Part shown: positions 19,226 to 38,424 of the stretch, in pieces
Numbering within the stretch: the first letter of the stretch is position 1
How the letters are laid out: each line of letters starts with the position of its first letter
Translations under genes and position numbers: made by a program
Notes under the pieces: model-generated
Database searches by the model: none
Told to the model about the DNA's origin: nothing
What the model saw: only the letters and a program-made list of their open reading frames with translations
NCBI RefSeq assembly: GCF_030505195.1
Contig: NZ_CP129672.1
Coordinates: 5,180,501-5,244,500 of the forward strand
Direction of reading: 5' to 3'
Length of the DNA: 64,000 nt
Source: Comamonas testosteroni
GTDB lineage: Bacteria; Pseudomonadota; Gammaproteobacteria; Burkholderiales; Burkholderiaceae_C

Positions 19226-20065
19226 TTGAGTCCAAAAGAACGAGGATTAATTTTGGACTCAGCCCCGTCTTCTGGTGATATTTCTGCTCCACGTGGTTCA
19301 CTTTCCATCACTTTTTCGGTATGGAACGCACTTTTCCTGCGCGAAGCCGTTGCGCGCCTGAGTGCTGCGCGCGGAGCCTGGGTGCTCATCGTGCTGGAGC
19401 CGGTGTTGCATGCCTGCTTTATGCTGCTGCTGTACACCGTTCTGCGTGCACGCTCTGTCGCTGGGGCTGATGTAGCCGTGTGGCTGGTCTTGGGGGTGAC
19501 TGGCTACTTCACGGTGCAGAACGTCTTCCAGCGCGCTATGGGCGCGGTTGATGCAAACAAGGCCTTGTTTGCCTATCGGCAGGTTCGCCCCATCGATACC
19601 GTGATTGTTCGAGCAGGTCTTGAAGCACTTTTAGGTCTTCTGATATTGAGTTCGCTGCTCGGTATTTTGGCCTTTCTTGGGCACTCTGTTATTCCTAATT
19701 CAGCGATGGAGGCTATGTTAGCCTTTATCGGGTTGATGCTGTGTGCTCTTGGAATTGGTCTTGTTTTATCCGTTCTAAGCGAAATTGTTCCAGAGGCGGG
19801 AAATTTAATGATGTTTTTATTTCGGCCTTTATATTTTTTGTCTGGTGCTATATTTCCATTATCTGCAATACCTATTCAATATAGAGAGTGGGCTTTTTAT
19901 AATCCATTTGCGCATGGTCTCGAGCTATTGAGAGGTGGTTTTTTTTCGGTTTATCATCAAGCTCCAGAAGCAAATTTTGAATATCTGTATGGATTTGCCG
20001 CTGTTTCAATTTTCTTTGGACTGGCCTTGCAGGTGCGTTTTTCCCAGAAGCTGAGGGCGCAATGA
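19226..20065 (+). CDS. kpsM: Capsule polysaccharide ABC transporter, membrane subunit
   Basis: A 279-residue ABC-2-type permease. About six hydrophobic segments are visible, e.g. VLIVLEPVLHACFMLLLYTVL, VWLVLGVTGYFTVQNVF, LLGLLILSSLLGILAFLG, and FRPLYFLSGAIFPLSAIP followed by YNPFAHGLELLRGGFF, which is the KpsM/CtrC pattern. The frame opens with TTG at 19226 and a weak ribosome site, so the exact start is uncertain. It overlaps kpsT by 4 bases. It is the inner-membrane channel of the capsule exporter. Confidence 0.88.
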   Translation: MSPKERGLILDSAPSSGDISAPRGSLSITFSVWNALFLREAVARLSAARGAWVLIVLEPVLHACFMLLLYTVLRARSVAGADVAVWLVLGVTGYFTVQNVFQRAMGAVDANKALFAYRQVRPIDTVIVRAGLEALLGLLILSSLLGILAFLGHSVIPNSAMEAMLAFIGLMLCALGIGLVLSVLSEIVPEAGNLMMFLFRPLYFLSGAIFPLSAIPIQYREWAFYNPFAHGLELLRGGFFSVYHQAPEANFEYLYGFAAVSIFFGLALQVRFSQKLRAQ

Positions 20066-20733
20066 TTATTGTCAGCGATGTGCACAAGCGATATCAGACA
20101 CCGCACGGTGCGGGGCGCTGGATTCTCAAGGGGGTGGATCTCACTATTCCCTCCAAGATTAGCGTGGGGCTGGTTGGCCGAAATGGCGCTGGCAAGTCAA
20201 CTTTGCTCAACTTGATTGGTGGAGTGGACACACCCACACGTGGAGCGGTGGAGAGGCGTAGCCGGGTTTCCTGGCCCATGGGCTATGGTGGTGGATTGCA
20301 AGGCTCTTTGACTGGTCGGCAGAATGCCAAGTTTGTCTGTCGACTACATGGCTTTGGCGAGCGTCGGTCAATGACGGAAAAAATTGCCTATATACAAGAT
20401 TTTGCAGAACTGGGTTCATCCTTTGATGAACCCGTCCGAAATTATTCTTCGGGTATGAAATCGCGACTGCAGTTTGGTCTCTCCCTTGCATTTGACTTCG
20501 ATGTGTATATATCGGATGAAGCGACTTCAGCTGGTGATGCATCGTTCAGAAAAAAAGCATCCGATGCATTCAAGAATATTGCGGATCGCTCGGGGCTCAT
20601 TATGGTTTCGCATAGCGACGGTACCTTGCGCGAATTTTGCCAGGCCGGAATCTGGCTGCATGAAGGCCAAGCCCATTGGTTCGACAGTATCGAAGATGCC
20701 CTGAAGAATTACAAAGACAGTATTTCCCAATGA
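20062..20733 (+). CDS. kpsT: Capsule polysaccharide ABC transporter, ATP-binding subunit
   Basis: A 223-residue ATPase. Walker A is GRNGAGKST (about residues 39-47), the Q-loop region is MGYGGGLQGSLTGRQ, the signature is NYSSGMKSRL and Walker B is DFDVYISDEATSAGD. The switch His is in VSHSD. The missing extra C-terminal domain is typical of KpsT/CtrD rather than Wzt. The ATG overlaps the end of kpsM, and its own stop overlaps kpsE. Confidence 0.93.
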   Translation: MIIVSDVHKRYQTPHGAGRWILKGVDLTIPSKISVGLVGRNGAGKSTLLNLIGGVDTPTRGAVERRSRVSWPMGYGGGLQGSLTGRQNAKFVCRLHGFGERRSMTEKIAYIQDFAELGSSFDEPVRNYSSGMKSRLQFGLSLAFDFDVYISDEATSAGDASFRKKASDAFKNIADRSGLIMVSHSDGTLREFCQAGIWLHEGQAHWFDSIEDALKNYKDSISQ

Positions 20734-21860
20734 TCGATTTTTTAAGAAAAGAACGCCTCAAAGGCCTTGGCAATGCTCTTTGGCGAATGAAAGCCTTGGC
20801 TGTTGCCTTGTTTGCATGTCTGCTGGCCGTAATCTATTGGGGTATGGTCGCTTCAGATCGCTACGTTTCCGAAGCGCATGTGTTGATTCAGCGCACTGAC
20901 ATGGCGGCTTCGCAAGCCATGGATTTCAGCTCGCTCTTGGCCGGTGGAGATGGGATCTCGCGTGCTGATCAAATGCTGCTGCGCGACAGATTGCTGTCTG
21001 TCGATATGTTGCTGCAACTGGATAAAGAACTGAACCTGCGCGAGCACTACAGCAGCCACGATCATGACCTGCTCTCACGCATGTTTTTCCATGATGCGTC
21101 TCTGGAGTTTTTTCACCGGCACTTTCTCTCACGCATCAGCGTGGAATATGACGAATATGCCGGGGTACTGGTCATTCAGGCCCAGGCGTATGACGCTGAA
21201 ATGGCTCGCAAGATCACTAGCGCACTGGTCCATGAGGGCGAGCGTTATATGAACTCGCTGGGCCATCAGCTGGCCCAGGAGCAGGTGAATTTTCTCGAAA
21301 AGCAGGTCAAGGAGCGTGGTGAACATGCGCTCAACGCGCGCCAGCGCGTGCTGGCCTTCCAGAATGCCAAGGGTCTGATTTCGCCGCAGTCTGCAGCCGA
21401 AAACCTGGCCGGAGTGGTCAACAAACTGGATGAGCAGTTGACCGAACTTAGCGCGCGCAAGACTGCGTTATTGGGCTATCTGGCTCCCACGGCACCTGCG
21501 GTCGTGGAAGTCGATCTGCAGATCCAGGCCGTGGAAAAGCAGATCAAAACAGAGAAAAACCGTCTGACCAGCGCCAAGGGGCAATCGCTAAACAAAACGG
21601 TGGAAGAGTACCAACGTCTGGAACTGGAGGCTCAGTTTTTGCAGGATGCCTATAAGAGCGCTTTGGTGGCGCTTGAAAAAGGCCGGGTGGAAGCAACGCG
21701 TACCTTGAAAAAGGTGCTGGTGCTGCAAAGTCCGTCGATGCCTGAATATCCCATGCGCCCCCGGCGCCTCTATAACATCGCTACCTTTATTTTGGGTGCC
21801 TTGCTGCTGGCCGGGTTGGTGCAATTGCTGGTGTCCATCGTCCGCGACCACCGCGACTGA
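20730..21860 (+). CDS. kpsE: Capsule export inner-membrane polysaccharide co-polymerase/adaptor
   Basis: A 376-residue PCP-3-type protein: an N-terminal membrane helix (MKALAVALFACLLAVIYWGMVASDRYVSEAHVLIQ), a long periplasmic coiled-coil rich region, a PAPAVVEVDLQIQAVEKQI-type stretch, and a C-terminal helix (LYNIATFILGALLLAGLVQLLVSIV) preceded by the Pro-rich PSMPEYPMRPRR motif. ATGA overlaps with the kpsT stop. With KpsD it is thought to link the ABC transporter to the outer membrane. Confidence 0.9.
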   Translation: MIDFLRKERLKGLGNALWRMKALAVALFACLLAVIYWGMVASDRYVSEAHVLIQRTDMAASQAMDFSSLLAGGDGISRADQMLLRDRLLSVDMLLQLDKELNLREHYSSHDHDLLSRMFFHDASLEFFHRHFLSRISVEYDEYAGVLVIQAQAYDAEMARKITSALVHEGERYMNSLGHQLAQEQVNFLEKQVKERGEHALNARQRVLAFQNAKGLISPQSAAENLAGVVNKLDEQLTELSARKTALLGYLAPTAPAVVEVDLQIQAVEKQIKTEKNRLTSAKGQSLNKTVEEYQRLELEAQFLQDAYKSALVALEKGRVEATRTLKKVLVLQSPSMPEYPMRPRRLYNIATFILGALLLAGLVQLLVSIVRDHRD

Positions 21861-23323
21861 TTGTTCTGAATTTTTCGAGTTTTATCATGCAACGTTTTAT
21901 CGCGCGTACCTGTATCAGTGCGGCAGTCGCGGTGCTGCTGACTGGTTTGGCGCCGGCTCAGGCCCAGACCTCTCAAGCCGGTTCCAAGCAAGATACATCG
22001 ACATCCAGTATTGATCCTTTCCAGATCAATCAGGCGCTGGGACTGGTGCCTTCTGGCGGGTCTTTCAGCGATGCTTCGGCAAGCCGTTCTGGTGCTGCCG
22101 TTCCCATGCAGTCTCCTGTGTTGCCGCAAGCCCCACAGACCGCTGATTACACGGCTAACCTCAATAGCGATGTCTTTGGCGCAAACCTGTTTACTGGCAA
22201 CTTTGCGCGTGCAGGGGCAACCCAGTTCAATCCCGATTATCTGGTGGCGGTAGGCGACCGCATTCATCTGCGCCTCTGGGGAGGCTTTACCTTTGACAGC
22301 GTGGCCGCTGTCGACCCGCAAGGCAATATCTTCCTGCCTCAGGTCGGGCCGATCAAGGTGCTGGGCATTGCCAACAAGAATCTGCAGCAACAGGTGGAAG
22401 CCGCCGTGCGCCGCGTGTTCCGCGCTAATGTCTACAGCTATGCCAGCCTGGCCGCCGCCCAGCCGGTGCGCATCTTTGTGGGTGGTAATGTCATGCGCCC
22501 GGGCTTGTACAACGGCACCAGCATGGACAGCCTGCTTAACTATCTGGACCAGGCGGGAGGCATTGACCCCGAGCGGGGCAGTTTCTTGACCGTGCAGGTC
22601 AAGCGAGGCAGTTCCGTACGAGCCACCTTCAATCTCTATGACTTTCTGCTCAAGGGCCAGTTACCGCTGCTGCAACTTAATGATGGAGATGTGATCTTTG
22701 TTCCCCCCATTGCCAACCGGGTGCGCGTATCGGGCCTTGTAAACAATGCCAAGCGCTTTGAGTTTTCCCGTGGCTCCGAAACAGTGGCTGAGTTGATGCA
22801 ACTGGCCAAACCTCAAGCCCAGGCAACCCATGTGCGTATTGCACGCAATACCGGAACCGTGAAGAACACGGAGTACTACCCGCTGCAGGAGGCCAATGCT
22901 TTGGTGCTGCAAAACGGAGACGAACTGGAATTCACTGCGGACAAGAAACCCGGCACCATTACCGTGCGGGTCGAAGGCGAGCATATGAATTCGCAGGAAT
23001 ATGTGCTGCCTTATGGAACCCGTCTCGGGGCTCTTATGCAGAGCATCCAGACCTTGCCGGACGCTGAGCCCGAGAGTGTCCAGCTTTTTCGGCAGAGTGT
23101 GAAGGAACGTCAGAAAGAGATGCTGGCAACTAGCTTGCGCAGCCTTGAAACGGCGTTGCTCACAGCCCGCAGTGGGAGTGTGGATGAGGCACGCTTGAGA
23201 CAGGAAGAAGCAAGCCTGACCTTGCAATGGGTGGAGCGTGCCAAGAAGGTGGAGCCCACTGGCCAGGTGCAGATTGCGCAGGCGGCGCAGCGCGACAATA
23301 TGTTGCTGGAAAACGGCGATGTC

Positions 23324-23327
23324 ATAC
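23324..23327. repeat. 4-bp target-site duplication (ATAC), left copy
   Basis: ATAC at 23324-23327 is repeated directly at 24614-24617, flanking the IS. Its presence and perfect match support a recent, intact insertion. Confidence 0.9.
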
Positions 23328-23344
23328 GGGAGCCTCTAAAAACC
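23328..23344. repeat. IS left terminal inverted repeat
   Basis: GGGAGCCTCTAAAAACC; one mismatch to the right terminus. Confidence 0.9.
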
Positions 23345-23445
23345 GCTGTTTTCAGCCAGTCACAGGCGCATGCGGCTTGAGCGCTTCGGATGAGCTCATT
23401 TTTTGAGCAATTTCCCCCTTTTTTGGGCATTTCTTGCCCCATTTC

Positions 23446-24555
23446 TCACCCATTGGCCCCTTGCAGGCGCACCTCGGTCTTTGAGGGCATTCCCTTGTCT
23501 TTGTAGAACGCATCCACCCCGTCGTCCACGAACTTGGCCAGACGCTTGAGGTTGTAGCAAACCGCCATCATGGTCATGGCCACCGTGGCGCGTGCCCGGC
23601 CAATGGTGCGGATGAGCTTGCCGCCCATGTGGCGCATCTGGGCAAAGGGGTGCTCCACCCGGGCTCGGGTTGTGGCAATGCGCTTGTTGCGCCCCTTCTG
23701 GCATTCGCTCAGGGGTTTGCCCGGCTTGGCCTTGCGCTGGATGTGCTCGCGATAGCCCAAGACCTTGAGCATCTCGCTGCGCTGTTCGCTGGGGTAGCCA
23801 CGGTCGGCATAGACATCGCAGCTGGTGTTGTGCTCATCGAGCACTTCATCAAAGTGCGTGCTGTCGTGCTCGCTGGCTGTGCCGGTGGTGATCTTGCGAA
23901 TGAACTTGTGGCGCACATCCACGCTGATGCTCAGCTTGTAGCCGTGGTAGCCCTTGCCGTGCTTCTTGGTATGGGTGGCGTCCAGGTCTTTTTGCCTGCG
24001 CTTGGCCTCGTTCCAGTCGCTGGGGATCTTGCCCTGATCCAACTGCTCTTTGTCTTGTTTTGTGAAGTGCTGGATGGGTGCAGGCACCAGGGTGGCATCG
24101 ATGATCTGCCCGCACCGCGCCAGGTAGCCGCGCTGCAGCAGTTGGCCGTCCACTGCCTGGAACAGGGCCGTCACGCCATCAACGCCCAGGCGCTGCTGGT
24201 AATGCCAGATGGTGTTGCGATCTGGGACGTTGGCGCTATCGGCCAGCAAGCAAAAGCGCTGGTAGCTCATGCGGTCAAGCAGTTGGTATTCCATCTGCTC
24301 GTCGCTGAGCTTGTAGAGATACTTCAGGATCAGGATGCGCACCATGACCGCGGTGGGATACGGCGGACGTCCACCCTTGGCGGCATCCCCTCGGGGCAGC
24401 AGTTGATCAATGACCCGCGTCAGCTCGTCAAAGTCAATGTGCCGGGCAATGACCTGCAGGGGATCGCCCAAGGTCTCGATCTTGTGCTTGCGCGCGGCAT
24501 CGGCGAAGAGGTCCAGCTTGATGGCGCTGCGCGCTTGCGCTTTGGGTTTGCTCAT
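23446..24555 (-). CDS. IS5-family transposase
   Basis: A 369-residue DDE transposase, apparently intact. The N-terminal domain has PPYPTAVMVRILILKYLYKLSDEQMEYQLLDRMSYQRFC; the first catalytic Asp is in IIDATLVPAP, the second in VYADRGYPSE, and the Glu in VEHPFAQMRHMGGK with the family's downstream K/R motif. The start ATG at 24555 leaves 58 bases to the right terminus. Because it is complete, the element may still be mobile. Confidence 0.95.
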   Translation of the reverse strand: MSKPKAQARSAIKLDLFADAARKHKIETLGDPLQVIARHIDFDELTRVIDQLLPRGDAAKGGRPPYPTAVMVRILILKYLYKLSDEQMEYQLLDRMSYQRFCLLADSANVPDRNTIWHYQQRLGVDGVTALFQAVDGQLLQRGYLARCGQIIDATLVPAPIQHFTKQDKEQLDQGKIPSDWNEAKRRQKDLDATHTKKHGKGYHGYKLSISVDVRHKFIRKITTGTASEHDSTHFDEVLDEHNTSCDVYADRGYPSEQRSEMLKVLGYREHIQRKAKPGKPLSECQKGRNKRIATTRARVEHPFAQMRHMGGKLIRTIGRARATVAMTMMAVCYNLKRLAKFVDDGVDAFYKDKGMPSKTEVRLQGANG

Positions 24556-24596
24556 GCGGTGATTGTCGCGTTGGCTGCGGTGCCATCAGGCGGGGA

Positions 24597-24613
24597 GGTT
24601 TTTAGAGGTTCCC
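24597..24613. repeat. IS right terminal inverted repeat
   Basis: GGTTTTTAGAGGTTCCC, the reverse complement of the left terminus but for one base. The duplicated ATAC follows at 24614-24617. Confidence 0.9.
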
Positions 24614-24617
24614 ATAC

Positions 24618-24952
24618 GCATACCACGCAAGGATGCGCTGGTGCTGGTCAGTGGCGAGGTGTTATTCCCCAATGCCGTGGCATTCGATGGCTCTTTGAGT
24701 CTCAAAGAATATATCGACCGAGCTGGCGGATTTACCCAGTCCGCAGATAACGCTCGCGTAGTGGTTGCCCATCGCGATGGAGCATTCCAGCAGGTCGATA
24801 CAAGCAGGTTATTTGCTGATGCCTCTATCAAAGCAGGAGATCAAATTTTGGTTCTCCCTAAGGTGGATGAAAAGAAGCGGCAGTTCTGGAAAGACATGAC
24901 TCAGATCATGTACCAGATTGCCATCAGCGCAAAAGTTGTGTTTGGTCTGTGA
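24618..24952 (+). pseudogene. kpsD: kpsD 3' remnant
   Basis: The last 111 codons of the broken export gene, from RIPRKDALVLVSGEVLFPN to AISAKVVFGL. A SLBB-like domain with VSGEVLFPNAVAFDGSLSLKEYIDRAGGFTQ is visible. The terminal stop overlaps the GTG of the next gene (24949), which keeps the downstream coupling arrangement. Confidence 0.92.
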
Positions 24953-24972
24953 ATATTTCGAGTTGTGAGTCT

Positions 24973-27900
24973 ATGAAAGCCCTGTACATCCTAGAGCCCG
25001 CTATCGAGCTGGGAAACCCCGAGTTTCGCTTCGCCACTCTGCGTAGCTCACTTGTTCATCAGATTAAAGCGCTGCGTTCTAATGGCGCCCAAACCCACCT
25101 AATTGCTGGCGAGGCTGTGGCCAGTCGCGCTATGCAGGACGGGTATTTGGAAGAACTGAACTCTGTTTCTGCAATTGATCATTTCGAATGGACGCAGGGT
25201 GAAAATTCCTTTGAGCGCTCTATGCGCCATCAAAGCAAGAATTACAAAGAAGGAGAAGTTGAACGTCTGCGAAAGATAATTGAATCGCAGTTACCGAGTG
25301 ATTTCTCACCAGACATCATCTTTGTTTGGGAGTCGCCTATGTACTTCTTGGAAGAGATATTCCCAGGGGTCAAGATCATCCACCAGATGCCCGGCTTCTT
25401 CTCACGATCTCCTTTCCCTGAACTGGTCAAATTTGATATTGGCCTTTTGGATAAGGCCGCTGGTGCCGTTTGTATTGAGGGTAAACAGCCTCTTGTGGAT
25501 GAAGCGTTGGAGCAACTGCGCTCCCAGGACAAGAGCTTTTTCCAATCTTTGAACCTTGTCGAACCACTGGTAAGCGGAATTAAGCATAAGTTCCAAGGAC
25601 TGGTACTATTTCCGCTGCAAATCGATCATTACTTCATGGTCGACTACCTGCTTCAACGTAGAAGTCAATTCGACATCGTATTGGATTTGCTGCAGAAAAC
25701 TCCATCGAATATTGGGGTGTTGGTGACCAATTATTGGTCTGGCAATTTGCGCAGTGCTGTGCTGAGTACAGAAAATGTCCGCTATTTGCGCAATAAGTTC
25801 AGCAATTTTGTCTACATCGAGAAGTTCAACACCATCCAGACAGTGTCACAGTTGCTGCTGCCGCTGGTGGACGGGGTCTACACCATATCCTCCTCAGTGG
25901 GGTACCAAGCGGCTTACTGGGGTAAGCCGGTGTTTTCCGTGGGTGCCAGCCATATCACGAAGTACAACACGGCAGCTCACCTTGAGGACTTTTTGTATCA
26001 GGTAGCAAAAAACATCAGTTTTTACCAGGATGACTTGATTAAGCGAGACATCTTAGGCTCTCACTTTCCAGCAGAGTGGATCAAGGAAAAACCCGGGCAT
26101 TTCTCCGCGTGGATTGAAGCGTTCACCAGTCCGACCCAATCCAGCCCCTGGACCTCTGATTCCCAGTTGTTGCAAGACTTCACGGCTTTGCGTCGGGAGC
26201 AGGCTTATTTGCGTCATTCTGGTTTCGAAAAAACAATTAATGGAGCGCACACGCTGACGCACTGTGCCGACCTCTCTGCACAGATTCGCAAGCACGACAT
26301 CGTATCTTTCGATATTTTCGACACCTTGTTGTTTCGTCCATTCAAGCGACCATCGGACATGTTCGATTTCATGGCGGAAGATGCGGCCAAGCTGATCTGT
26401 CGTAACGATCTACATTTCAAGGATGTTCGTCGCCAGAGTGAAAAACTTGCCTTCGAAGCGGCCATTGGCCGCGGAGAGGGAGAAACCCATATTGATGAAA
26501 TTTATGAGCATTTCCAGGTTTTGACAGGATGTAGTTTTGAAGAGGCTGAACAGGTCAAGGCATTAGAAATGCAACTGGAATATGACCTGCTCTATGAACG
26601 AAAGAGTGCCAGGACTGCATTCAATCAAGCTGTGAGCATGGGAAAGCGGGTCATTGTCATTTCCGACATGTACCTGCCTCAGGAGTTTTTAGAGAAAATT
26701 CTCCTGAAAAATGGCTATCAAGGCTATGAGCGTATTTTTGTTTCAAGCCAGGTAAAGCAGAAAAAACATAGTGGTCGCTTGTTCGATCATGTGCTCAAGG
26801 AGTTAGGAGTTCCAGCCGCGTCAATTTTGCATGTTGGTGACAATCTCCAAGCCGATGTTATAAAAGCCAAAGAGAGAGGCATCAAGCCTTTCCACTTGGT
26901 TAAGGCTTCAGAGGTCTTTGAGAAGAGCGATTCCTATAAATCCATCTGGAGTCGCGATGAGGAGCGCCATAGTTTGGACGCTCAAATGTTGATTGCGATG
27001 GTAGGTAATACGTTGCATGACAATCCTTATTTGCCGAGCCGCCGTGGAACTTTGTTCAGTGGAGATGCCTGGAGACTTGGTTACTACGGCTTCGGTATGT
27101 TCTTGTTGGGCTATGCCAAGTGGATCATGGAGCAAGCCATTCGCGACAAGATGGATCGGTTGTACTTTCTATCGCGTGATGGCCTGATCATGAAGAAGGC
27201 ATACGATCTACTGGCCAAGCATTACCCTGATGCCCCAAAAAGCCACTACCTGCTCTGCTCTCGTCGGGCGGTGAACCTGGCCAAGATCAGAGATGAGTCC
27301 GGCATTATCGACTTGTTGAATGTGGACTATGCGCAGACATCGATTAGTCATCTGCTCAATGCACGCTTTGGCCTCAAAGACAGCGATGTGGATACAGCCT
27401 TGCTTAAGCAGCACGGATTGGCACTCGACTCGCGGGTGAATGCCAAGCATCGCCCTGTGCTCAAGGAAATCCTGCTTGCCCACAAACAGAAGATCTTTGC
27501 CATTGCCCAGCGTGAGCGCGAAAACTATCTCCAATACTTGGAAGATGAAGATCTTTTTGATGATGGAAATGTAGCCATCGTCGATATCGGCTATGCAGGC
27601 ACCATGCAAGAGTCGCTTTACGAACTGACTGACCGTCGTAAGCCGATTCAAGGGTATTACTTGATGACTTTCCGTCAGGCATTACAGCGTGTGGAGAAGA
27701 AAGGCTTGTCTGCCAAGGCGTATCTGGCCAACTTTGTTGATCGTCACGATACCTTTCATCCGTTCTGCAGATTCGTTCCTTTGTACGAAACTCTATTTTC
27801 CAACACAGAAACTACGTTTCTCAAGATGGAAAAGGACTGGAATGGCGCTCTAAAGCCGGTTCATATGAACCGTTTCCCACAAGAAGAAACACGTGAGAAC

Positions 27901-28416
27901 GTGGTGACACGGGTACATGCCGGTGCTTTGGAGTTTATTACTACTGCCAGCACAGTGATGGGGGAATGGCTCCACAAAATTGATATTGAACCCAATAAGT
28001 CAATGCGAGTGCTGGATCGCTATTTTTCAGATCCTCACGCGGTAGATGCTCAGGTGCTTTGCGGGGTTGTTTTTGAGGATGCTTATGGTGGTGCAGGCCT
28101 GAAAATTATTCTTGGTAAACCCGGGGATAATTCTGTTAGATCTGTTTGGTCCAATGGTGTTAATTCGATAAATAAGATTCCCAAAAAATCGGATGTGGTA
28201 CCGTTGGCTAAAACTGAAAAAAAATATGACTTGCCTTTGGCAGAGGATAAATTATTTTTTGAAAAATTATTTATAGAGAACTTGGTGAGAAGATTTACCT
28301 CCGATAGGAAATACAAAAAATTCCAGAGCGATCCAGCTGCATTTTTTGCTGATTCAAAGAAAATATATGGAAGGTTATTTGCTTGGATATACTTTGCGAG
28401 GGCAAAAAATGTTTAA
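24973..28416 (+). CDS. Large glycosyltransferase-like/HAD multidomain capsule protein
   Basis: About 1,147 residues from ATG at 24973 (a GTG at 24949 overlaps kpsD). Three parts can be seen. Residues 1-400 look like a capsule-synthesis/glycosyltransferase domain (FVWESPMYFLEEIFPGVKIIH and a later DGVYTISSSVGYQAAYWGKPVFSVG). About 440-640 is a HAD domain with DIFDTLLF and VISDMYLP, VLHVGDN-like ILHVGDNLQADV. The rest resembles the C-terminal part of COG5610 HAD proteins (YFLSRDGLIMKKAYD, SRRAVNLA, VDIGYAGTMQESLYEL). It is probably a polysaccharide assembly enzyme; the reaction is unknown. Confidence 0.75.
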   Translation: MKALYILEPAIELGNPEFRFATLRSSLVHQIKALRSNGAQTHLIAGEAVASRAMQDGYLEELNSVSAIDHFEWTQGENSFERSMRHQSKNYKEGEVERLRKIIESQLPSDFSPDIIFVWESPMYFLEEIFPGVKIIHQMPGFFSRSPFPELVKFDIGLLDKAAGAVCIEGKQPLVDEALEQLRSQDKSFFQSLNLVEPLVSGIKHKFQGLVLFPLQIDHYFMVDYLLQRRSQFDIVLDLLQKTPSNIGVLVTNYWSGNLRSAVLSTENVRYLRNKFSNFVYIEKFNTIQTVSQLLLPLVDGVYTISSSVGYQAAYWGKPVFSVGASHITKYNTAAHLEDFLYQVAKNISFYQDDLIKRDILGSHFPAEWIKEKPGHFSAWIEAFTSPTQSSPWTSDSQLLQDFTALRREQAYLRHSGFEKTINGAHTLTHCADLSAQIRKHDIVSFDIFDTLLFRPFKRPSDMFDFMAEDAAKLICRNDLHFKDVRRQSEKLAFEAAIGRGEGETHIDEIYEHFQVLTGCSFEEAEQVKALEMQLEYDLLYERKSARTAFNQAVSMGKRVIVISDMYLPQEFLEKILLKNGYQGYERIFVSSQVKQKKHSGRLFDHVLKELGVPAASILHVGDNLQADVIKAKERGIKPFHLVKASEVFEKSDSYKSIWSRDEERHSLDAQMLIAMVGNTLHDNPYLPSRRGTLFSGDAWRLGYYGFGMFLLGYAKWIMEQAIRDKMDRLYFLSRDGLIMKKAYDLLAKHYPDAPKSHYLLCSRRAVNLAKIRDESGIIDLLNVDYAQTSISHLLNARFGLKDSDVDTALLKQHGLALDSRVNAKHRPVLKEILLAHKQKIFAIAQRERENYLQYLEDEDLFDDGNVAIVDIGYAGTMQESLYELTDRRKPIQGYYLMTFRQALQRVEKKGLSAKAYLANFVDRHDTFHPFCRFVPLYETLFSNTETTFLKMEKDWNGALKPVHMNRFPQEETRENVVTRVHAGALEFITTASTVMGEWLHKIDIEPNKSMRVLDRYFSDPHAVDAQVLCGVVFEDAYGGAGLKIILGKPGDNSVRSVWSNGVNSINKIPKKSDVVPLAKTEKKYDLPLAEDKLFFEKLFIENLVRRFTSDRKYKKFQSDPAAFFADSKKIYGRLFAWIYFARAKNV

Positions 28417-30400
28417 GCGAGGCGATCCGTTTTTGCGTTCTGTGGAGCGTGAAGTCAATACCAAGATTATTTGTCAGCAAAGCTTGAACGAACTCGAGGA
28501 GGAGTATGCAGGAGGAGGGGATGATTTCTATAAAAAAATTGTAGTGGCATGTGCAATGATGAAGCTGTATCCAAGCAAAGTGCGCGGATACCTAATATCT
28601 TATGATGCTCTCTCTTATTTGGGTTTTAATGAAGACTCGCTGTATATACTTGATAAGGTCGATCGGTTATTTGGTAGTGATATGGGGGTCGCTGCGAGAA
28701 AATTAGATCGTTTAATTAAGACGAATAGATTTTCTGAAATTTACGATCTGATTAATAGTAGGTTAGATATTTTTATATCTCACTCGAAAAAAGATAATAG
28801 ATTTTTTAATAATTTAAAGAAATTTGCAGAAATAACTAAAGATAAAACTCTGTTGGGGTTGCTTGCATTGCCAAGTTCTCCAGTAGAGGATTTGGATTCT
28901 TCATTTTTTAAGGTATTTGATTTTTCTGAGCAGAACAAGCTTTTAGATGTTTTGATTGGAAAGAGGCGGTGGAAGGATTGCGAGTATGCAATCTGGGAAT
29001 TTTACCGAATGGGTAACAGAACTTATGAGTTTTTTGTTAAGTCGGTTGAAGAGCTTCCATATGAAAATTTCTTCACTCCACGGGTAATGTTTTTTAGAAT
29101 GGATGCATTTAAAAATCATCCTGGGGTAATTTATTTTTTTGAGAAGTCATTTCAATCCGTATTTAATAGATGTGAAATATCTTATGCGGTTGATATTTTT
29201 AGAAATGCGGTTCTTCATATTGGATTTACAGACGCGCTGATTCATGCTGGGGCTAGACTTGCAGCGTTGGGCGGGGACGTAGGTGTAGATAATGAGGCGT
29301 TCTGGGCCGAGAAAATTAAGAGGATCCCAGCGACAATCATTTGTATGACTCGAGCACATCAAGTGGCGGGATGGCGAGGAGAAAAAGAGAGAGCAAGAGC
29401 AATAAGATATTTTGCCGAAAAAAATGGCATTCATCTCCCGCTTGAGAAGGAGTCCTGTGAAAATCGTAGAGGGCGAGTTGCTGTCTGCGTCTCTGGTCAA
29501 TTAAGAGGTTCTTGGCGAGATTTTATTGAGAATACAAACTCAATCTCAAAAAAAATTGATGCAGATGTATTTGTAGATATATGGAATGAAAGTGTTCTTG
29601 CTCCGCCAAGATTTGCGCAACTAAATAGGTATCTAGGTGAGCTCGTTAATGAGCTTCCAGTTGAGTATCGCTCAGCGCATGAGTTTTCGAAAAAATTTCC
29701 TAAAGTCTTCAAGAGAATTACTGAGCGCGTTTCAAGAAAGATTGATGCAAAATATTTCTCTGAATCAATTGATAACTCTCATATAAACCTACACTCTGCC
29801 TTCGAATTCGAAGAACAGTGTGTTGAAAAATTTCCAGGCCTAAGACTGAAGGCCGGATTTAATCAAGCAAAAATGTATTTTTTACTTGATCAGGTTTTTA
29901 GATCTATGTCTAATCATGAAGTGAGAGTTAGAGATAGATATGATGTCGTTATACGGTGCCGGCCTGATATGGAAATAGATTTACCAAGTATGGATAAATT
30001 TATTGAGGCTGTGAGAGATCAGAGGAATTTGATATATGTGACCTATCTAACACCGATGGGATTTGGAGATCAGTTTGCAATTGGTTCTCGTGAGGCGATG
30101 GAGGTATATTCTGGTGTTTGGCGGAAGTTGGTTGAGAGTGGAATTTTTAGATATGAAGAGTATTTTGAATCATCAGTGGAGGTTAACGCCGCTGAGGAGT
30201 TGTTGGCGGCTCACCTTGTGTCAAATGGTATAGATGTTCGAGTGCTAAGGCCTCGGAAAAGCATATTTTCTGCGCCTGTGATTTTAAGCGAGGTTGATAT
30301 ATCAAATGAGCTTAAGGAAGATCTGGAATGTATTGGTGATCCGAAATTAGAATTATTCTATGATGCTTATCAAAAATTTTATTCTGAGAGGATATTGTGA
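28409..30400 (+). CDS. Large AT-rich capsule-locus protein, possibly a glycosyltransferase
   Basis: 663 residues from ATG at 28409, with GAGGG upstream; it overlaps the previous stop. The coding sequence is much richer in A and T than the rest of the window, with AAA, ATT and GAT codons dominant. Residues to about 360 are helical with TPR-like character and no recognised motif. The C-terminal half has VAVCVSGQLRGSWRDF, ADVFVDIWNE, YDVVIRCRPDMEIDLP and FGDQFAIGSREAM, a pattern I have seen in putative capsule glycosyltransferases. Function not assigned. Confidence 0.6.
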   Translation: MFKRGDPFLRSVEREVNTKIICQQSLNELEEEYAGGGDDFYKKIVVACAMMKLYPSKVRGYLISYDALSYLGFNEDSLYILDKVDRLFGSDMGVAARKLDRLIKTNRFSEIYDLINSRLDIFISHSKKDNRFFNNLKKFAEITKDKTLLGLLALPSSPVEDLDSSFFKVFDFSEQNKLLDVLIGKRRWKDCEYAIWEFYRMGNRTYEFFVKSVEELPYENFFTPRVMFFRMDAFKNHPGVIYFFEKSFQSVFNRCEISYAVDIFRNAVLHIGFTDALIHAGARLAALGGDVGVDNEAFWAEKIKRIPATIICMTRAHQVAGWRGEKERARAIRYFAEKNGIHLPLEKESCENRRGRVAVCVSGQLRGSWRDFIENTNSISKKIDADVFVDIWNESVLAPPRFAQLNRYLGELVNELPVEYRSAHEFSKKFPKVFKRITERVSRKIDAKYFSESIDNSHINLHSAFEFEEQCVEKFPGLRLKAGFNQAKMYFLLDQVFRSMSNHEVRVRDRYDVVIRCRPDMEIDLPSMDKFIEAVRDQRNLIYVTYLTPMGFGDQFAIGSREAMEVYSGVWRKLVESGIFRYEEYFESSVEVNAAEELLAAHLVSNGIDVRVLRPRKSIFSAPVILSEVDISNELKEDLECIGDPKLELFYDAYQKFYSERIL

Positions 30401-31116
30401 TTATTTTCACTATGGCAGGCCTGAGCAGTAGATTTTCCAAAGCTGGTTACCAAGTTCCGAAGTATGCTCTTGAGCTAGATGGTATTACACTTTTTGAGTG
30501 GGCTACTCGCTCATTTGAACGTTATTTTGATTGCGAGCAATTTCTTTTTGTGGTCCGTCCAGATAATTTTGCTCAGTCTTTTGTTGAAAATGCGGTACAA
30601 AAGCTCGGTATCCGTAACTACGAAATTTTCAGCTTAGACGGTGATACGCGTGGACAAGCCGAAACGGCATATCTGGCATTACGGTCTCATGGCGATGATT
30701 TTCCGATAACGGTATTCAATATCGACACCATTCGCTATGACTATCGCAAGCCAGATTTTCTGTCCGAGTGCGATGGCTACCTGGAGGTGTTCCGTGGTGA
30801 AGGGGAGCACTGGTCGTTTGTGGAGCCGGGCCTCGGGGCTTCGGTGATTCGCACTACAGAAAAGGACCGTATTTCCGATCTGTGTAGCGATGGACTGTAC
30901 TACTTTAAGAGTCAACAACAGTTTTGCAGTATCTTTGAGCAAGCTATCGCAGCCAATGAGCAGGTGAAGGGGGAGTTCTATATTGCGCCGTTATACAACC
31001 GTTTGATCGACGAGGGGGGAGTGGTCAAGTACGAGGTAATCGGTCCGGAGCAGATCGATTTCTGTGGCACCCCAGACGAGTATGAGGAATTGTTGAAAAA
31101 AAAGGCGCTGGCATGA
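30397..31116 (+). CDS. Nucleotidyltransferase-like protein of the capsule locus
   Basis: A 239-residue protein from a GTG at 30397 that overlaps the previous stop by 4 bases (GTGA). The N-terminus VIIFTMAGLSSRFSKAGYQVPKYALELDGITLFEWAT is the nucleotidyltransferase signature (a G-x-S-x-R-F loop and a PK motif), with a TVFNIDTIRYDY metal-binding Asp region and FCGTPDEYEELLK at the end. It probably activates a phosphorylated sugar, polyol or base. It forms a coupled run with the phosphatase and nucleotidyltransferase-kinase genes. Confidence 0.7.
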   Translation: MIIFTMAGLSSRFSKAGYQVPKYALELDGITLFEWATRSFERYFDCEQFLFVVRPDNFAQSFVENAVQKLGIRNYEIFSLDGDTRGQAETAYLALRSHGDDFPITVFNIDTIRYDYRKPDFLSECDGYLEVFRGEGEHWSFVEPGLGASVIRTTEKDRISDLCSDGLYYFKSQQQFCSIFEQAIAANEQVKGEFYIAPLYNRLIDEGGVVKYEVIGPEQIDFCGTPDEYEELLKKKALA

Positions 31117-31480
31117 AAAGAATCGTGATGGATCTGGATGAGACTATTTGCTCTACCGTAAATGGTGATTATGCCAACTCCATACCCAAGCCGGATGTGA
31201 TAGAGCGCATGCGCGAATTCAAGGCACAGGGATTTGAGATTGTGATCAGCACGAGCCGCAATATGCGCACGTATGAAGGCAATGTTGGCAAGATCAATGC
31301 CAATACGCTGCCGATTATTCTCGGCTGGCTGGATAAGCACAAAGTGCCGTATGACGAGATCTATACCGGAAAGCCTTGGTGTGGAACCGATGGTTTCTAC
31401 GTGGATGATCGAGCTTTGCGGCCTGACGAGTTCGTGCAGTTGTCCGTGGCGGATATTCGGAAGCTGGTGGGGATCAAGAG

Positions 31481-31484
<4 letters not shown>
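31113..31484 (+). CDS. EcbF/BcbF-like capsule biosynthesis phosphatase (HAD)
   Basis: A 123-residue HAD protein with motif I DLDETICST (Asp-Leu-Asp) at about residues 7-15, motif II STSRNMR and motif III/IV GFYVDDRAL. The small size and the YDEIYTGKPWCG ending match the capsule phosphatase family named EcbF/BcbF in Pasteurellaceae. ATGA joins it to the gene before and the gene after. It would dephosphorylate a capsule precursor. Confidence 0.78.
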
Positions 31485-33882
<2,398 letters not shown>

Positions 33883-33915
33883 GCCGCGATGTATCGCGGC
33901 TTTCTCTGATTTTTT
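33883..33915 (+). terminator. Terminator after kdsA
   Basis: GCCGCGAT and ATCGCGGC (8 bp, 2-base loop) directly follow the kdsA stop, followed by TTTCTCTGATTTTTT. Confidence 0.8.
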
Positions 33916-33920
33916 ATAAA

Positions 33921-33961
33921 AATGGCTGCTATCGCTTGTTTGATAAGCGGTAGTAGCTATT
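33921..33961. repeat. AGCTGCTA-family hairpin between kdsA and kdsBC
   Basis: A 17-bp stem with three G-U pairs, AATGGCTGCTATCGCTT against AAGCGGTAGTAGCTATT, with a 7-base loop and a T-rich tail. It may act as a second terminator or mRNA processing element. Confidence 0.7.
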
Positions 33962-33980
33962 GTTTTTATATTTATTGAAT

Positions 33981-35315
33981 ATGCAACATGCTCTGACGGA
34001 GCCCACTTCGGACGCTTATTCCAGGAGCGGTGCTGGCATAGGTACAGCAGTAGCTATTGTGATTCCGGCGCGCTATGGCTCGACCCGGTTGCCCGGAAAG
34101 CCTCTGGCTGACATTGCGGGCAAACCCATGATTCAGCATGTGTACGAGCGCGCGTGCCAGGTTGCAGGTGTGCAGGCCGTACTGGTCGCAACCGATGATG
34201 ATCGGGTGGCGCAAGCCGTGCAGGCATTTGGCGGTCGCTGGGTAATGACCTCTAAGGATCATCCGTCCGGCACGGACCGCCTGGCTGAGGTGATGGCTCA
34301 GGTCCCCGCAGACATTTATGTCAATCTGCAGGGTGATGAGCCGCTGGTGCGCCCCGGGGATGTGCAGCGATTGGTGGACGGCATGCTGGCTGATGCCAGC
34401 GTGGCTGTGGGAACGCTCTGCCATTCGATCGATGGACAGGAAGCACTGAACCCGAATACGGTGAAGGTGGTTTTGGCCGATAACGGCGACGCGTTGTATT
34501 TCAGCCGTTCACCGATTCCCTATCCACGTGATCCGCAGGAAGCCACCTATCTCAAGCATGTGGGCGTCTATGCCTATCGCCGCGAAGTGCTGGAGCGCTA
34601 TTCCGGCTTGCCTCAGCCCATGGCCGAGAAGGCCGAAAAGCTCGAACAGTTGCGTCTCATGGCTGCCGGTCTGAAGATTCGTGCCTATGCAGTAGAGCCT
34701 ACGGGGCCTGGCGTCGATACGCCCGAGTGTCTGGAGCGCGTGCGCGCGCTGCTGGAAGGGCGTGAGCCGGAGCCGCGGCCGACGCTGGCTGATGTTCGCC
34801 TAGTGATTACCGATGTGGATGGGGTGCTGACCGATGGCGGGCTGTTTTATGACGCTACTGGCGAGTGCATGAAGCGCTTTCACGTGCGAGATGGTCTCGG
34901 GATGAAGTTGCTGGAGGAAAGCGGCGTGCGTGTGGCCGTGCTCTCCGGCCGTGACTCGGCCACGCTGCGCAAGCGTGTTGCCGATTTGGGCCTGACTCTG
35001 TGCATGCTGGGCGTCAAGGACAAGGCCGCTGCTTGTCGTGAACTGATGTCCCAGGCTGGAGTGCAGGCAGAACAAACAGTCTGTATTGGTGACGACAGCA
35101 TTGATTTGCCGGCCTTTTCGGCCTGCGGCCTGAGCTTTGCCGTACCTGATGCCCCGGTTTACGTACGCCAGGCGGCAAGCGGTGTGTTACAGACCCCGGG
35201 CGGGCAGGGTGCATTTCGTGAGTTGGCAGACGCCATCCTCGCTGCACAGGGCAAACAAGACGTGATCGGCTCTGCCGAAGGCTATGCAGGCGTGATGTCT
35301 GCCATGACTCAATGA
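33981..35315 (+). CDS. kdsB-kdsC: Bifunctional CMP-KDO synthetase and KDO-8-phosphate phosphatase
   Basis: A 444-residue fusion. Residues about 23-260 are KdsB (VIPARYGSTRLPGKPLADIAGKPMIQHVYERA; ATDDDRVA; NLQGDEPL; FSRSPIP). Residues about 275-430 are KdsC, a HAD phosphatase (VITDVDGVLTDGGLFYDA; AVLSGRDS; CIGDDSIDLP). The two enzymes act at successive steps: KdsC makes free KDO, which KdsB then activates with CTP. The linker is short (REPEPRPTLADV). These genes are usually separate. Start ATG at 33981. Confidence 0.95.
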   Translation: MQHALTEPTSDAYSRSGAGIGTAVAIVIPARYGSTRLPGKPLADIAGKPMIQHVYERACQVAGVQAVLVATDDDRVAQAVQAFGGRWVMTSKDHPSGTDRLAEVMAQVPADIYVNLQGDEPLVRPGDVQRLVDGMLADASVAVGTLCHSIDGQEALNPNTVKVVLADNGDALYFSRSPIPYPRDPQEATYLKHVGVYAYRREVLERYSGLPQPMAEKAEKLEQLRLMAAGLKIRAYAVEPTGPGVDTPECLERVRALLEGREPEPRPTLADVRLVITDVDGVLTDGGLFYDATGECMKRFHVRDGLGMKLLEESGVRVAVLSGRDSATLRKRVADLGLTLCMLGVKDKAAACRELMSQAGVQAEQTVCIGDDSIDLPAFSACGLSFAVPDAPVYVRQAASGVLQTPGGQGAFRELADAILAAQGKQDVIGSAEGYAGVMSAMTQ

Positions 35316-35336
35316 CGAACAGAGGGAAGTAGACAC

Positions 35337-36329
35337 ATGGACATGAAAGTGAAGAACGATACTGCAGGCGATGCTTTGGCTATTGCGCAAGAAACGCTGG
35401 ACATAGAGATCGAAGCACTGCGCCGTATGCGCTCGCGTATGGATGCCCGTTTCAACGATGCGGTGGAGATGGTGTTGTCCATGCAGGGACGCGTGGTGGT
35501 GGTGGGCATGGGCAAGTCCGGCATCATTGGGCAGAAGATTGCCGCCACGCTGGCATCCACAGGAACACCAGCCTTTTTTGTGCACCCGGGAGAGGCATTC
35601 CACGGCGACCTGGGCATGATCAAGCCCATCGATGTGGCGCTGCTGATTTCCAATTCAGGCGAAACGGAAGAAGTGCTGCGCATTCTCCCGTTCCTGGAGC
35701 ATCAGAAGAACAGGATCATTGCCTTGACCGGCAAGATGGAGTCCACACTGGCACGCCATTCGCACGTCGTACTGGATGTTGGGGTAGAGCGTGAAGCTTG
35801 CAAAAACAATCTGGCTCCTACCAGCTCAACCACCAATACGCTGGCCATGGGCGATGCCCTGGCGGTTGCCTTGACGGTCAAGCGCGATTTCCAGCCTGAG
35901 GATTTTGCGCGCTTCCATCCCGGGGGGAGCCTGGGGCGCCGCCTGCTGACGAGCGTATGCGATGTCATGCAAAAAGGGCCGTTGCCTGTGTGTTCCCCCG
36001 ATGCATCGTTCCGCGATGTGGTGACCTCTATCACCTATGGCCGCATGGGACTGACTTTGGTGATGGATGGAGAAGCGCTGCGAGGCATCATCACGGATGG
36101 CGACCTCCGCAGGGCGTTCGGTGCCCAGGATGATGTGAAGCTTTTGAGTGCTCAGCACATGATGTCATCGAACCCTCTGACGATTGGTGAAGAGGTTCGT
36201 TTTGCAGAAGCCGAAGCCTTCATGAGGGAAAAAGAGGTGGGGGCTCTGGTTGTGAAGAATGGCGGAGGTCAAGTGACGGGCGTGCTTCAGATCTATGGTC
36301 TGAAGGGCGAATCTTCTCCGGCAGTTTGA
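35337..36329 (+). CDS. kpsF: Arabinose-5-phosphate isomerase
   Basis: A 330-residue SIS plus two-CBS protein, converting ribulose-5-phosphate to arabinose-5-phosphate for KdsA. The SIS domain has VVVGMGKSGIIGQKIAATLASTGTPAFFVHPGEAFHGDLGM and LISNSGETEE. CBS motifs follow: DVMQKGPLPVCSPDA and HMMSSNPLTIG. The CBS region may sense a nucleotide. Ribosome site GAGGGA upstream of ATG at 35337. The name kpsF is used for the capsule-locus copy; the LPS copy is kdsD. Confidence 0.95.
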   Translation: MDMKVKNDTAGDALAIAQETLDIEIEALRRMRSRMDARFNDAVEMVLSMQGRVVVVGMGKSGIIGQKIAATLASTGTPAFFVHPGEAFHGDLGMIKPIDVALLISNSGETEEVLRILPFLEHQKNRIIALTGKMESTLARHSHVVLDVGVEREACKNNLAPTSSTTNTLAMGDALAVALTVKRDFQPEDFARFHPGGSLGRRLLTSVCDVMQKGPLPVCSPDASFRDVVTSITYGRMGLTLVMDGEALRGIITDGDLRRAFGAQDDVKLLSAQHMMSSNPLTIGEEVRFAEAEAFMREKEVGALVVKNGGGQVTGVLQIYGLKGESSPAV

Positions 36330-36330
36330 T

Positions 36331-38424
36331 ATGAGGTTCGGGATTCTCTCGAAGGGTATTGGCAGAATCCCTTTCCTTGATAGGTTGGCGGGCGCTGATG
36401 TTTCGCGCCTGTCTTCCTGGCTCCGGTTGGATGTGGATGCTGTGGCCGGGTGGGGCCTGCGCCCCAGCACACGCAAGGCCATCGCTTACGCAAGCAAGCA
36501 TGGGCTGCCTTATGTGGCGCTGGAAGACGGCTTTCTGCGCTCCTTTGGCACCGGCGAGCATTTCCCGCCGCTGTCGCTGGTGGTCGATGACGCCGGCATC
36601 TATTACGACTGCACTAGGCCCAGTGCGCTGGAGCGCTTGCTGAGCAGCGATGCCGATGTGCGGGCTGCGGATGCCGCGCTGGTGCGGCAGGCCCGCGAGA
36701 AATTGCTGGTCGAGGGACTGAGCAAGTACAACCATGCACCTGAGCTGCCTGAGGGCATGCTGCGCAGCGAAGATGTTCAGCGGGTGCTGGTGGTGGACCA
36801 GACGGCGGGCGATATGAGCGTAGCCAAGGGCGGTGCGGATGCCGCTACGTTCAACGCCATGCTGGCCGCTGCGCTGGCCGAGAACCCGCAGGCCACGGTC
36901 TATGTCAAGACCCATCCCGAGGTGACTTCGGGCCGCAAGGGTGGCTATCTGACCGGCGTGCAGCCCGATGCCCGCACGGTGGTGTTGCGTGATGCGGTCA
37001 ACCCGATGAGCCTGATTGCGCAGGTGGACAAGGTCTATGTGGTCAGCTCGACCATGGGCTTCGAGGCCTTGCTGGCCCACAAGCCGGTCGTCTGTTTTGG
37101 CGTGCCCTGGTATGCGGGCTGGGGTGTGACGGATGATCGCCAGCCGCAGCATCCCGCCATGTTGCGTCGCGCCGCTCGCCGACGCTCGGTGGACGAGTTG
37201 TTTGCCGCCGGCTATATGCACTACAGCCGCTATCTGAATCCGGAAACCCGGCAGCGCGGCAACGTACTGGATGTGATGGAGTGGCTGCAGCGTCAGCGCC
37301 AGGTGGCTCGGCGCTTTGGCGGGCGCATGATTGTGGTGGGCTTTCGGCGCTGGAAGGCCGCGAACGTGAAGGCCATGCTGTCGCTGTATCCCGGCAAGGT
37401 GGTCTTCGTCAAGAATGTTGCTGCGGCCAGGGTTTTGCAGCCTGGCGGTGAAGATTGCCTGATCTGCTGGGGCCGGGTGCCGCCTGAAGGTGTGCAGCAG
37501 TTGGCGGATGCAGCGGGGGTGCGCCTGCTTCGCATGGAGGATGGCTTTGTTCGCTCGGTGGGCCTGGGCTCCGATCTGATTCCACCGCAGTCCTTTGTGC
37601 TGGATGCCAAGGGCATCTATTTCGACCCGGGTCAGCCCTCGGAGCTGGAGGATTTGCTCAACACCCGGCCATTCACGGCGCAGGATCTGGAGCGTGCTCG
37701 CAAGGTGCGCACCTTTATCGTCGAGCATGGCATCACCAAGTACAACCTCGCGCCCAATCGTCCTGTGAACTGGTTCAACCAGGATCGCCCGCAGGCCGGT
37801 CGGCAGGTGGTGCTGGTGCCAGGGCAGGTGGAAGACGATGCCTCCATTCGCTTTGGTTGCGATGCTGAGGGTGTTTGCACAAATCTGGGTCTGATCCAGG
37901 CGGCGCGCGCTGCGTTTCCTCATGCATTCATTGTCTTCAAGCCGCATCCCGATGTGAGCAGCGGCAATCGCAAGGGCCATGTCGAACCGGCCCAGGCTTT
38001 GCAGTATGCCGATCACATTGAACAGGGCGCTTCGGTGGTCAGTTGTATCGAGGCCTGCGACGTGGTGGTGACCATGACCTCATTGACGGGCTTTGATGCC
38101 TTGTTGCGCAACAAGCAGGTGGTTGTGCATGGGCGCCCGTTCTACGCAGGCTGGGGTCTGACGCAGGACCGCTTGCCTGTGCCGCGCCGCAGCCGCCCGC
38201 TGTTGCTGGATGAGCTGGTTGCCGGGGCGCTGCTGCACTACCCCTTGTATTGGGATCCGAAGCTCAGGGGCTATACCAGCTGCGAAGCGGTGCTCAGGCG
38301 TTTGCTGGAGCAGCGTACGGCGCTGGAGCAGTCTGGCGGCTTGCAGGGTTTGAAGTCCGGCTGGTTGCGGCGGCAATGGCGTAAATCAAGGGTATTGCTT
38401 CGGTCGATTATGTCGGGTTGGTGA
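36331..38424 (+). CDS. kpsC: Capsule beta-KDO transferase KpsC
   Basis: A 697-residue protein built from two related halves. Each contains an E-D-G-F-(L/V)-R-S block (ALEDGFLRSFGTGEHFPPLSLVVDDAGIYYD near residue 62; RMEDGFVRSVGLGSDLIPPQSFVLDAKGIYFD near 395) and a later PVVCFGVPWYAGWG / VVVHGRPFYAGWG block. KpsC adds the alternating beta-KDO linker on the lipid anchor using CMP-KDO, so kdsA, kdsBC and kpsF feed it. Length and duplication match the family. It starts 1 base after the kpsF stop. Confidence 0.96.
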   Translation: MRFGILSKGIGRIPFLDRLAGADVSRLSSWLRLDVDAVAGWGLRPSTRKAIAYASKHGLPYVALEDGFLRSFGTGEHFPPLSLVVDDAGIYYDCTRPSALERLLSSDADVRAADAALVRQAREKLLVEGLSKYNHAPELPEGMLRSEDVQRVLVVDQTAGDMSVAKGGADAATFNAMLAAALAENPQATVYVKTHPEVTSGRKGGYLTGVQPDARTVVLRDAVNPMSLIAQVDKVYVVSSTMGFEALLAHKPVVCFGVPWYAGWGVTDDRQPQHPAMLRRAARRRSVDELFAAGYMHYSRYLNPETRQRGNVLDVMEWLQRQRQVARRFGGRMIVVGFRRWKAANVKAMLSLYPGKVVFVKNVAAARVLQPGGEDCLICWGRVPPEGVQQLADAAGVRLLRMEDGFVRSVGLGSDLIPPQSFVLDAKGIYFDPGQPSELEDLLNTRPFTAQDLERARKVRTFIVEHGITKYNLAPNRPVNWFNQDRPQAGRQVVLVPGQVEDDASIRFGCDAEGVCTNLGLIQAARAAFPHAFIVFKPHPDVSSGNRKGHVEPAQALQYADHIEQGASVVSCIEACDVVVTMTSLTGFDALLRNKQVVVHGRPFYAGWGLTQDRLPVPRRSRPLLLDELVAGALLHYPLYWDPKLRGYTSCEAVLRRLLEQRTALEQSGGLQGLKSGWLRRQWRKSRVLLRSIMSGW

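What the first reader, a model, noticed from the sequence alone, without database searches (positions are those of the whole stretch)
21887..24952. Capsule export gene kpsD is inactivated by an intact IS5-type element, and the original gene can be reconstructed
The IS (23328-24613) has 17-bp inverted repeats and a complete transposase, and ATAC is duplicated on both sides. Deleting the element plus one ATAC joins GDVI to RIPRKDALVLVSGEV in frame, giving a 591-codon kpsD. All other capsule genes look intact, so this strain has probably lost surface capsule by a single recent event. It may revert by precise excision. Synthesis without export could be harmful, so downstream genes may be silenced by polarity. 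This is an unusually clean natural knock-out.
Basis: partly seen in the sequence, partly recalled or inferred. Interest (0 to 1): 0.85.

Follow-up and report, generated by a model that had tools for sequence, protein, structure and literature searches.

The report
Jumping gene breaks capsule export gene
In this Comamonas bacterium a small jumping DNA element sits inside the only gene found for the outer-membrane pore that exports the capsule, so the cell has very probably lost its coat; it is a clean and recent example of a well-known kind of event.

Summary
A 1286-bp IS5-family element (23328-24613; terminal repeats matching at 16 of 17 positions; 4-bp duplication ATAC; intact 369-aa transposase) splits kpsD into pieces of 479 and 112 codons. 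A second, 100% identical copy elsewhere in the genome has its own 4-bp duplication (TATC). kpsD is the only Poly_export (PF02563) match in the 6.08-Mb genome, so no second kpsD was found. The host is a Comamonas close to C. testosteroni. Twelve other capsule-cluster genes match one relative at or near full length.

New here: (1) an uninterrupted 591-aa protein identical to both pieces (479/479, 112/112) is in public data, so the empty-site allele exists and the insertion is young. (2) Of 17 Comamonas genomes with this gene, 15 have it in one frame. The other broken one, C. composti DSM 21721, was hit independently by an IS3-like element 35 codons upstream.

The insertion cuts off the last SLBB module and the C-terminal helix thought to cross the outer membrane. 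Surface capsule is very likely lost, with any polymer made held in the periplasm. Reversion and polarity remain untested. IS insertion in capsule genes is well documented: a new member of a known kind.

The parts
21887..23323 (+). kpsD upstream piece, 479 codons: signal region, Poly_export domain (115-178), first Pfam SLBB (195-272); the open frame runs on to 23380 through the IS left end
23324..23327 (.). left copy of target-site duplication ATAC
23328..24613 (-). IS5-family insertion sequence, 1286 bp, intact
23328..23344 (.). left terminal inverted repeat, 17 bp (16 of 17 match)
24597..24613 (.). right terminal inverted repeat, 17 bp
23446..24555 (-). IS5-family DDE transposase, 369 aa
24614..24617 (.). 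right copy of target-site duplication ATAC
24614..24952 (+). kpsD downstream piece, 112 codons plus stop: last SLBB module and C-terminal helix; the frame can be read from a TTG at 24563 inside the IS but has no signal peptide that I can see
19226..20065 (+). kpsM, ABC transporter membrane subunit
20062..20733 (+). kpsT, ABC transporter ATPase
20676..21860 (+). kpsE, periplasmic co-polymerase (BexC/CtrB/KpsE family; true start probably later)
24949..33043 (+). type-specific region: orf1155 (HAD domain), orf684, orf239 (NTP-transferase-like), orf123, orf520
33040..36329 (+). Kdo supply: kdsA, fused kdsB-kdsC, kpsF
36331..40018 (+). kpsC and kpsS, Kdo linker transferases

Best explanation
A recently active IS5-family element transposed into codon 479/480 of kpsD, the only outer-membrane polysaccharide export (OPX) gene found in this Comamonas genome, and duplicated 4 bp of target. 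The product ends before the last SLBB module and the C-terminal helix that is thought to line the outer-membrane pore (inferred). KpsMT and KpsE are still encoded, so polymer, if still made, would cross the inner membrane and stay in the periplasm, and the cell would lack surface capsule (inferred). The insertion is young: an uninterrupted allele with an identical protein exists, and both copies of the IS are identical.
For: IS anatomy and duplication. Second identical copy with its own 4-bp duplication. Uninterrupted protein P0001 identical over 479/479 and 112/112 residues. One frame in 15 of 17 Comamonas genomes with the gene, in 23 of 24 family genomes with it (399 searched), and in 59 of 63 named loci (the sets overlap in part). 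Single PF02563 match in the genome. Model of relative P0007: last SLBB from strand 479-482, terminal helix 565-589. Literature, passages or section seen: cells without KpsD had no surface polymer and accumulated it in the periplasm (PMC11041684); removing 11 C-terminal residues of E. coli KpsD abrogates function, as reported there from an earlier paper (PMC9603273).
Against: No phenotype data. Export by another, unrelated outer-membrane protein is not excluded: PMC2864759 (passages) notes that Bordetella kps clusters appear to lack kpsD. The downstream piece has a possible start in the IS, so two-piece complementation is not strictly excluded. The structure model has modest confidence (mean pLDDT 63.4, terminal helix about 58-66). 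P0001's source is withheld, so its strain is unknown.
Confidence: 0.87

Rival explanations
1. Reversible switch: the IS moves in and out of kpsD (or intact and interrupted alleles are both kept in the population) and works as slow phase variation of the capsule.
For: An empty-site allele with identical protein exists and the duplication is perfect. Precedents, passages seen: IS1301 (IS5 family) in siaA of N. meningitidis and ISAba13 in A. baumannii itrA (PMC9038732); precise excision of IS5 (PMC5493358).
Against: No excision was observed here. The same paper calls reversion low-frequency and found none in 2.8 x 10^5 colonies without stress. The only other IS insertion found in kpsD is a different element at a different codon, so no shared hot site is seen.
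Confidence: 0.1
2. Ordinary decay: the lineage no longer needs this capsule, and the IS insertion is the first step of loss of the locus, as in relatives that lack or have lost it.
For: 36 of 53 Comamonas genomes lack the kpsD downstream piece, including G045, which is 96% identical in the flank. G048 keeps a kpsC match to residues 221-694 only and no kpsD. C. composti carries an independent IS in kpsD.
Against: Twelve other cluster genes match a relative at or near full length, so no further decay is visible. This is compatible with the best explanation rather than opposed to it.
Confidence: 0.5
3. The insertion arose in laboratory culture of the sequenced isolate and is not natural.
For: The empty-site protein is identical at all 591 positions. 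Capsule is readily lost in vitro by IS insertion in Klebsiella (PMC12077207, passages).
Against: Nothing in the sequence tells laboratory from natural origin; the isolate's history is not available here.
Confidence: 0.35
4. The capsule is still exported, through the truncated KpsD, the two pieces together, or another protein.
For: The upstream piece keeps its signal region, Poly_export and first SLBB; an in-frame TTG start exists for the downstream piece.
Against: The C-terminus is essential in E. coli KpsD and Wza (PMC9603273, passages). No promoter-like site was listed on the + strand between 23328 and 24613. No other Poly_export protein in the genome.
Confidence: 0.05

Closest known systems
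IS5-family insertion sequences (NCBIfam NF033581 transpos_IS5_4)
   Same: DDE transposase above the curated cut-off, 17-bp terminal repeats, about 1.3 kb, 4-bp duplication at both full copies
   Different: No full-length copy outside the host in the genus sample; next best 80% DNA identity over positions 99-1206 in C. composti. Targets ATAC and TATC do not fit the YTAR-like target that I recall for IS5 itself.
KpsD-type outer-membrane polysaccharide export (OPX) proteins
   Same: Poly_export plus SLBB domains; model resembles Wza (2j58) and GfcC (3p42); gene order kpsMTED ... kdsA-kdsB-kpsF-C-S; C. metallidurans has kpsMTED-kdsAB-kpsFCS (PMC2864759, passages)
   Different: This copy is interrupted; a type-specific region lies between kpsD and kdsA.
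IS-mediated capsule loss (Klebsiella capsule operon; A. baumannii itrA::ISAba13; N. meningitidis siaA::IS1301)
   Same: An IS with a perfect duplication interrupts a capsule gene (PMC12077207, PMC9038732, passages)
   Different: Here the export pore gene of a group-2-type cluster in an environmental Burkholderiales genus; phenotype and reversion unknown.

Membership tests
IS5 family insertion sequence | IS5-type DDE transposase, full length | tested here: met
   NF033581 262 bits, cut-off 140; DDE_Tnp_1 94 bits
IS5 family insertion sequence | terminal inverted repeats and short target duplication | tested here: met
   16 of 17 matching ends; ATAC and TATC duplications at the two full copies
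IS5 family insertion sequence | YTAR target preference of the IS5 subgroup (recalled) | tested here: not met
   two targets only, ATAC and TATC; so I file it in the family, not in that subgroup
KpsD / OPX class 2 | Poly_export plus SLBB domains | tested here: met
   PF02563 and PF22461 in the upstream piece, PF22461 and PF10531 in the downstream piece
KpsD / OPX class 2 | GfcC-like C-terminal module and terminal helix | tested here: inconclusive
   relative P0007: Foldseek hits to Wza and GfcC, helix 565-589, at modest confidence; no Pfam GfcC match
KpsD / OPX class 2 | lies in an ABC-type capsule cluster with kpsMT, kpsE, kpsC, kpsS, kpsF | tested here: met
   KpsM, KpsE and KpsS score below NCBIfam equivalog cut-offs
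IS-driven capsule phase variation | empty and occupied alleles in one lineage | tested here: met
   P0001 protein identical to both pieces; strain unknown
IS-driven capsule phase variation | repeated insertion of the element at a hot site | tested here: not met
   the only other IS insertion found in kpsD (C. composti) is another element, 35 codons upstream
IS-driven capsule phase variation | excision with return of capsule | not testable with these tools
   needs culture or reads

The most novel reading that the evidence does not exclude
kpsD is a recurrent, convergent off-switch for capsule in Comamonas: unrelated elements hit the stretch just before the last export module in separate lineages, and IS occupancy of kpsD in one otherwise identical lineage acts as a slow reversible capsule switch.
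Probability: 0.1. Interest if true: 0.5.

Novelty: new member of a known kind. Interest (0 to 1): 0.25.

Why it matters
Capsule status affects phage sensitivity, biofilm and surface properties of an environmental bacterium, and a genome-only annotation of a complete kps locus would wrongly call this strain capsulated. The locus also offers a natural test of what happens when capsule synthesis and inner-membrane export genes stay intact but the outer-membrane pore is lost. The independent break in C. composti suggests that loss at this gene recurs.

Tried and rejected
A second kpsD was looked for and not found (PF02563, downstream piece: one match in G000). Polarity through intrinsic terminators in the IS: 9 terminator-like sites in 18800-26000 against a mean of 8.6 in shuffles, so no support. 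Outward promoter at the IS right end: none listed on the + strand there. Naming the strain through its second contig: plasmid relatives at 96.6-97.0% identity, all Comamonas, none identical. No match for the kpsD region in plasmids. The IS has only 70-81% partial matches in plasmids.

Lesion cluster: three lesions lie at residues about 444 (C. composti), 464-465 (P0037 frameshift) and 479 (this genome). I do not claim a hot spot: the count is small and post hoc, P0037 could be a sequence error, and Ramlibacter terrae shows a frame change at about 284.

Literature: no paper held the words Comamonas, capsul and KpsD together, none the five terms; two searches gave 4 and 2 papers by listing, of which I looked at passages of one (PMC2864759). 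A search for structures of KpsD by sequence gave Wza only, and none for the downstream piece. PMC2408645 was looked at in passages and not used.

Full report
What is there. The window lies at 5180501-5244500 of the larger contig (5.91 Mb) of a two-contig genome of 6.08 Mb. Related loci with names place it in Comamonas, near C. testosteroni: a 4-kb flank stretch is 97% identical to G046, whose contig is that of C. testosteroni JL40, and 96% to G050 and G045. The window holds an ABC-transporter-type capsule cluster: kpsM, kpsT, kpsE, kpsD, a type-specific region, kdsA, fused kdsB-kdsC, kpsF, kpsC, kpsS.

The insertion. Between 23328 and 24613 lies a 1286-bp element with ends matching at 16 of 17 positions and a 369-aa IS5-family transposase on the minus strand, flanked by ATAC on both sides. 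The genome holds one more full copy, 100% identical over 1286 bp, at 3868945-3870230, with the duplication TATC. It interrupts a gene whose product looks to me like an acyl-CoA ligase (no family search run on it), and two partial, diverged relatives exist. Two identical full copies, each with a perfect duplication, point to recent activity. In 52 other Comamonas genomes, 6 have any DNA match and none a full-length near-identical copy.

The interrupted gene. The upstream piece (479 codons) carries Poly_export and an SLBB; the downstream piece (112 codons) carries an SLBB. In relatives the two pieces are neighbours without a residue between them: 118 of the 118 listed proteins that hold both, counting P0078, whose internal duplication gave a false offset at first. 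Two of the 120 listed proteins lack the downstream piece: P0071, which is C. composti, and P0037, a frameshifted relative from an unnamed source that may be real or an error. The list is the best 120 of 2450 hits.

Age and alleles. P0001 (591 aa) matches the upstream piece at 479 of 479 and the downstream piece at 112 of 112 residues. Its cluster has three member sequences in eight contigs, the longest 368,846 bp, so at least its representative does not come from the 5.9-Mb contig. The source is withheld, and I cannot tell whether one of the three members is the window's own truncated protein. The empty-site allele therefore exists in a very close relative or in another assembly of the same strain.

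Relatives. Of 53 Comamonas genomes (own included), 17 have the downstream piece. Its open frame is 595-667 aa in 15, and 129 and 158 aa in this genome and G008. Of 399 family genomes (own included), 24 have it at E<=1e-20, and the 23 others have open frames of 559-1164 aa. Of 63 named loci found with the upstream piece, 59 hold both pieces in one frame. The other four are L037 and L092, which end at a contig end, L089 (Ramlibacter terrae), which changes frame near residue 284, and L094 (Variovorax J22R187), with a match to residues 83-147 only. These sets share genomes.

A second, independent break. G008 is C. composti DSM 21721: L037 matches G008 contig C34 at 100%. Its kpsD stops matching after residue 444 and runs into AGAAGTGGTCCC to the contig end. 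On contig C24 the rest begins after GGGGCCACTTCT, and CTG stands on both sides, a 3-bp duplication. Beside it an HTH_Tnp_1 transposase start is found, which fits an IS3-type element; the middle of the element is not assembled. kpsE and kpsC of that genome are in frames of 401 and 702 aa. So kpsD was hit in a second species, at another codon, by another element.

Other genes of the cluster. Against RQ_Bin_4 (G024), 12 cluster genes (kpsM, kpsT, kpsE, orf1155, orf239, orf123, orf520, kdsA, kdsBC, kpsF, kpsC, kpsS) match at 89-98% over all or nearly all of their length; orf684 matches at 28%. G022 matches kpsMTE and kdsA onward but not the type-specific genes; for JL40 and G049 I had fetched only part of the cluster. 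Across the genus, all 19 kpsE matches have open frames of 373-422 aa; among 21 genomes with a kpsC match, G048 and the two distant ones, G003 and G010, are partial. The kpsE rows list stops beside the start, because the query's start is probably too early.

Mechanism. Shown: the interruption, its target duplication, the single OPX gene by PF02563. Inferred: loss of function. A model of relative P0007 (mean pLDDT 63.4, N-terminal third poor) puts the break at the first strand of the last SLBB and a helix at 565-589. Foldseek finds Wza and GfcC at low TM-scores normalised to the query (0.16-0.24), along with ubiquitin-fold proteins that I take as chance resemblance. In published work, the KpsD C-terminus is taken to cross the outer membrane, and cells without KpsD showed no surface polymer and held it in the periplasm (PMC11041684, passages and section 6). 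Truncation of E. coli KpsD by 11 residues is reported to abolish function (PMC9603273, passages).

Reversion and polarity. Reversion by scarless excision of a capsule-gene IS is known in A. baumannii and is a low-frequency process (PMC9038732, passages); precise excision of IS5 is described (PMC5493358, passages). Nothing here shows it. Polarity is possible, because the IS holds about 1.2 kb with no kps frame; intrinsic terminator-like sites are not in excess.

Verdict. It is a new instance of IS-mediated capsule-gene inactivation, with the useful additions of an identical empty-site allele and an independent second case in the genus.

Noticed in passing
L037 6001-7321 and L011 1501-1945 (C. 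composti DSM 21721): kpsD interrupted after residue 444 by an IS3-like element with a 3-bp CTG duplication, independent of the window's insertion.
   Followed up: yes
L031 346-1631 (G000:C1:3868945-3870230): Second identical IS copy with a TATC duplication, inside a gene that looks like an acyl-CoA ligase.
   Followed up: partly
28346-30400: orf684 of the type-specific region matches RQ_Bin_4 at only 28% while its neighbours match at about 89-98%: looks like a capsule-type replacement.
   Followed up: partly
19226-20065 versus 4700-8700: KpsM is 84% identical (protein) to JL40 while a nearby flank is 97% (DNA): the capsule locus may have been exchanged between lineages.
   Followed up: no
39793-42746: A 523-aa protein without family match and a cytochrome P450 follow kpsS and are kept in RQ_Bin_4 (91% and 99%) and G022 (53% and 93%); their role in the capsule cluster is unknown to me.
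   Followed up: no
P0037 (protein list): A 94% identical KpsD of 501 aa loses the frame at about residue 465 and lacks the last SLBB; real lesion or sequence error not decided.
   Followed up: partly
L089 6591-6597 and L094 6001-6195: Frame change in Ramlibacter terrae kpsD and a match to only 65 residues in Variovorax sp. J22R187: possible further broken kpsD genes.
   Followed up: no
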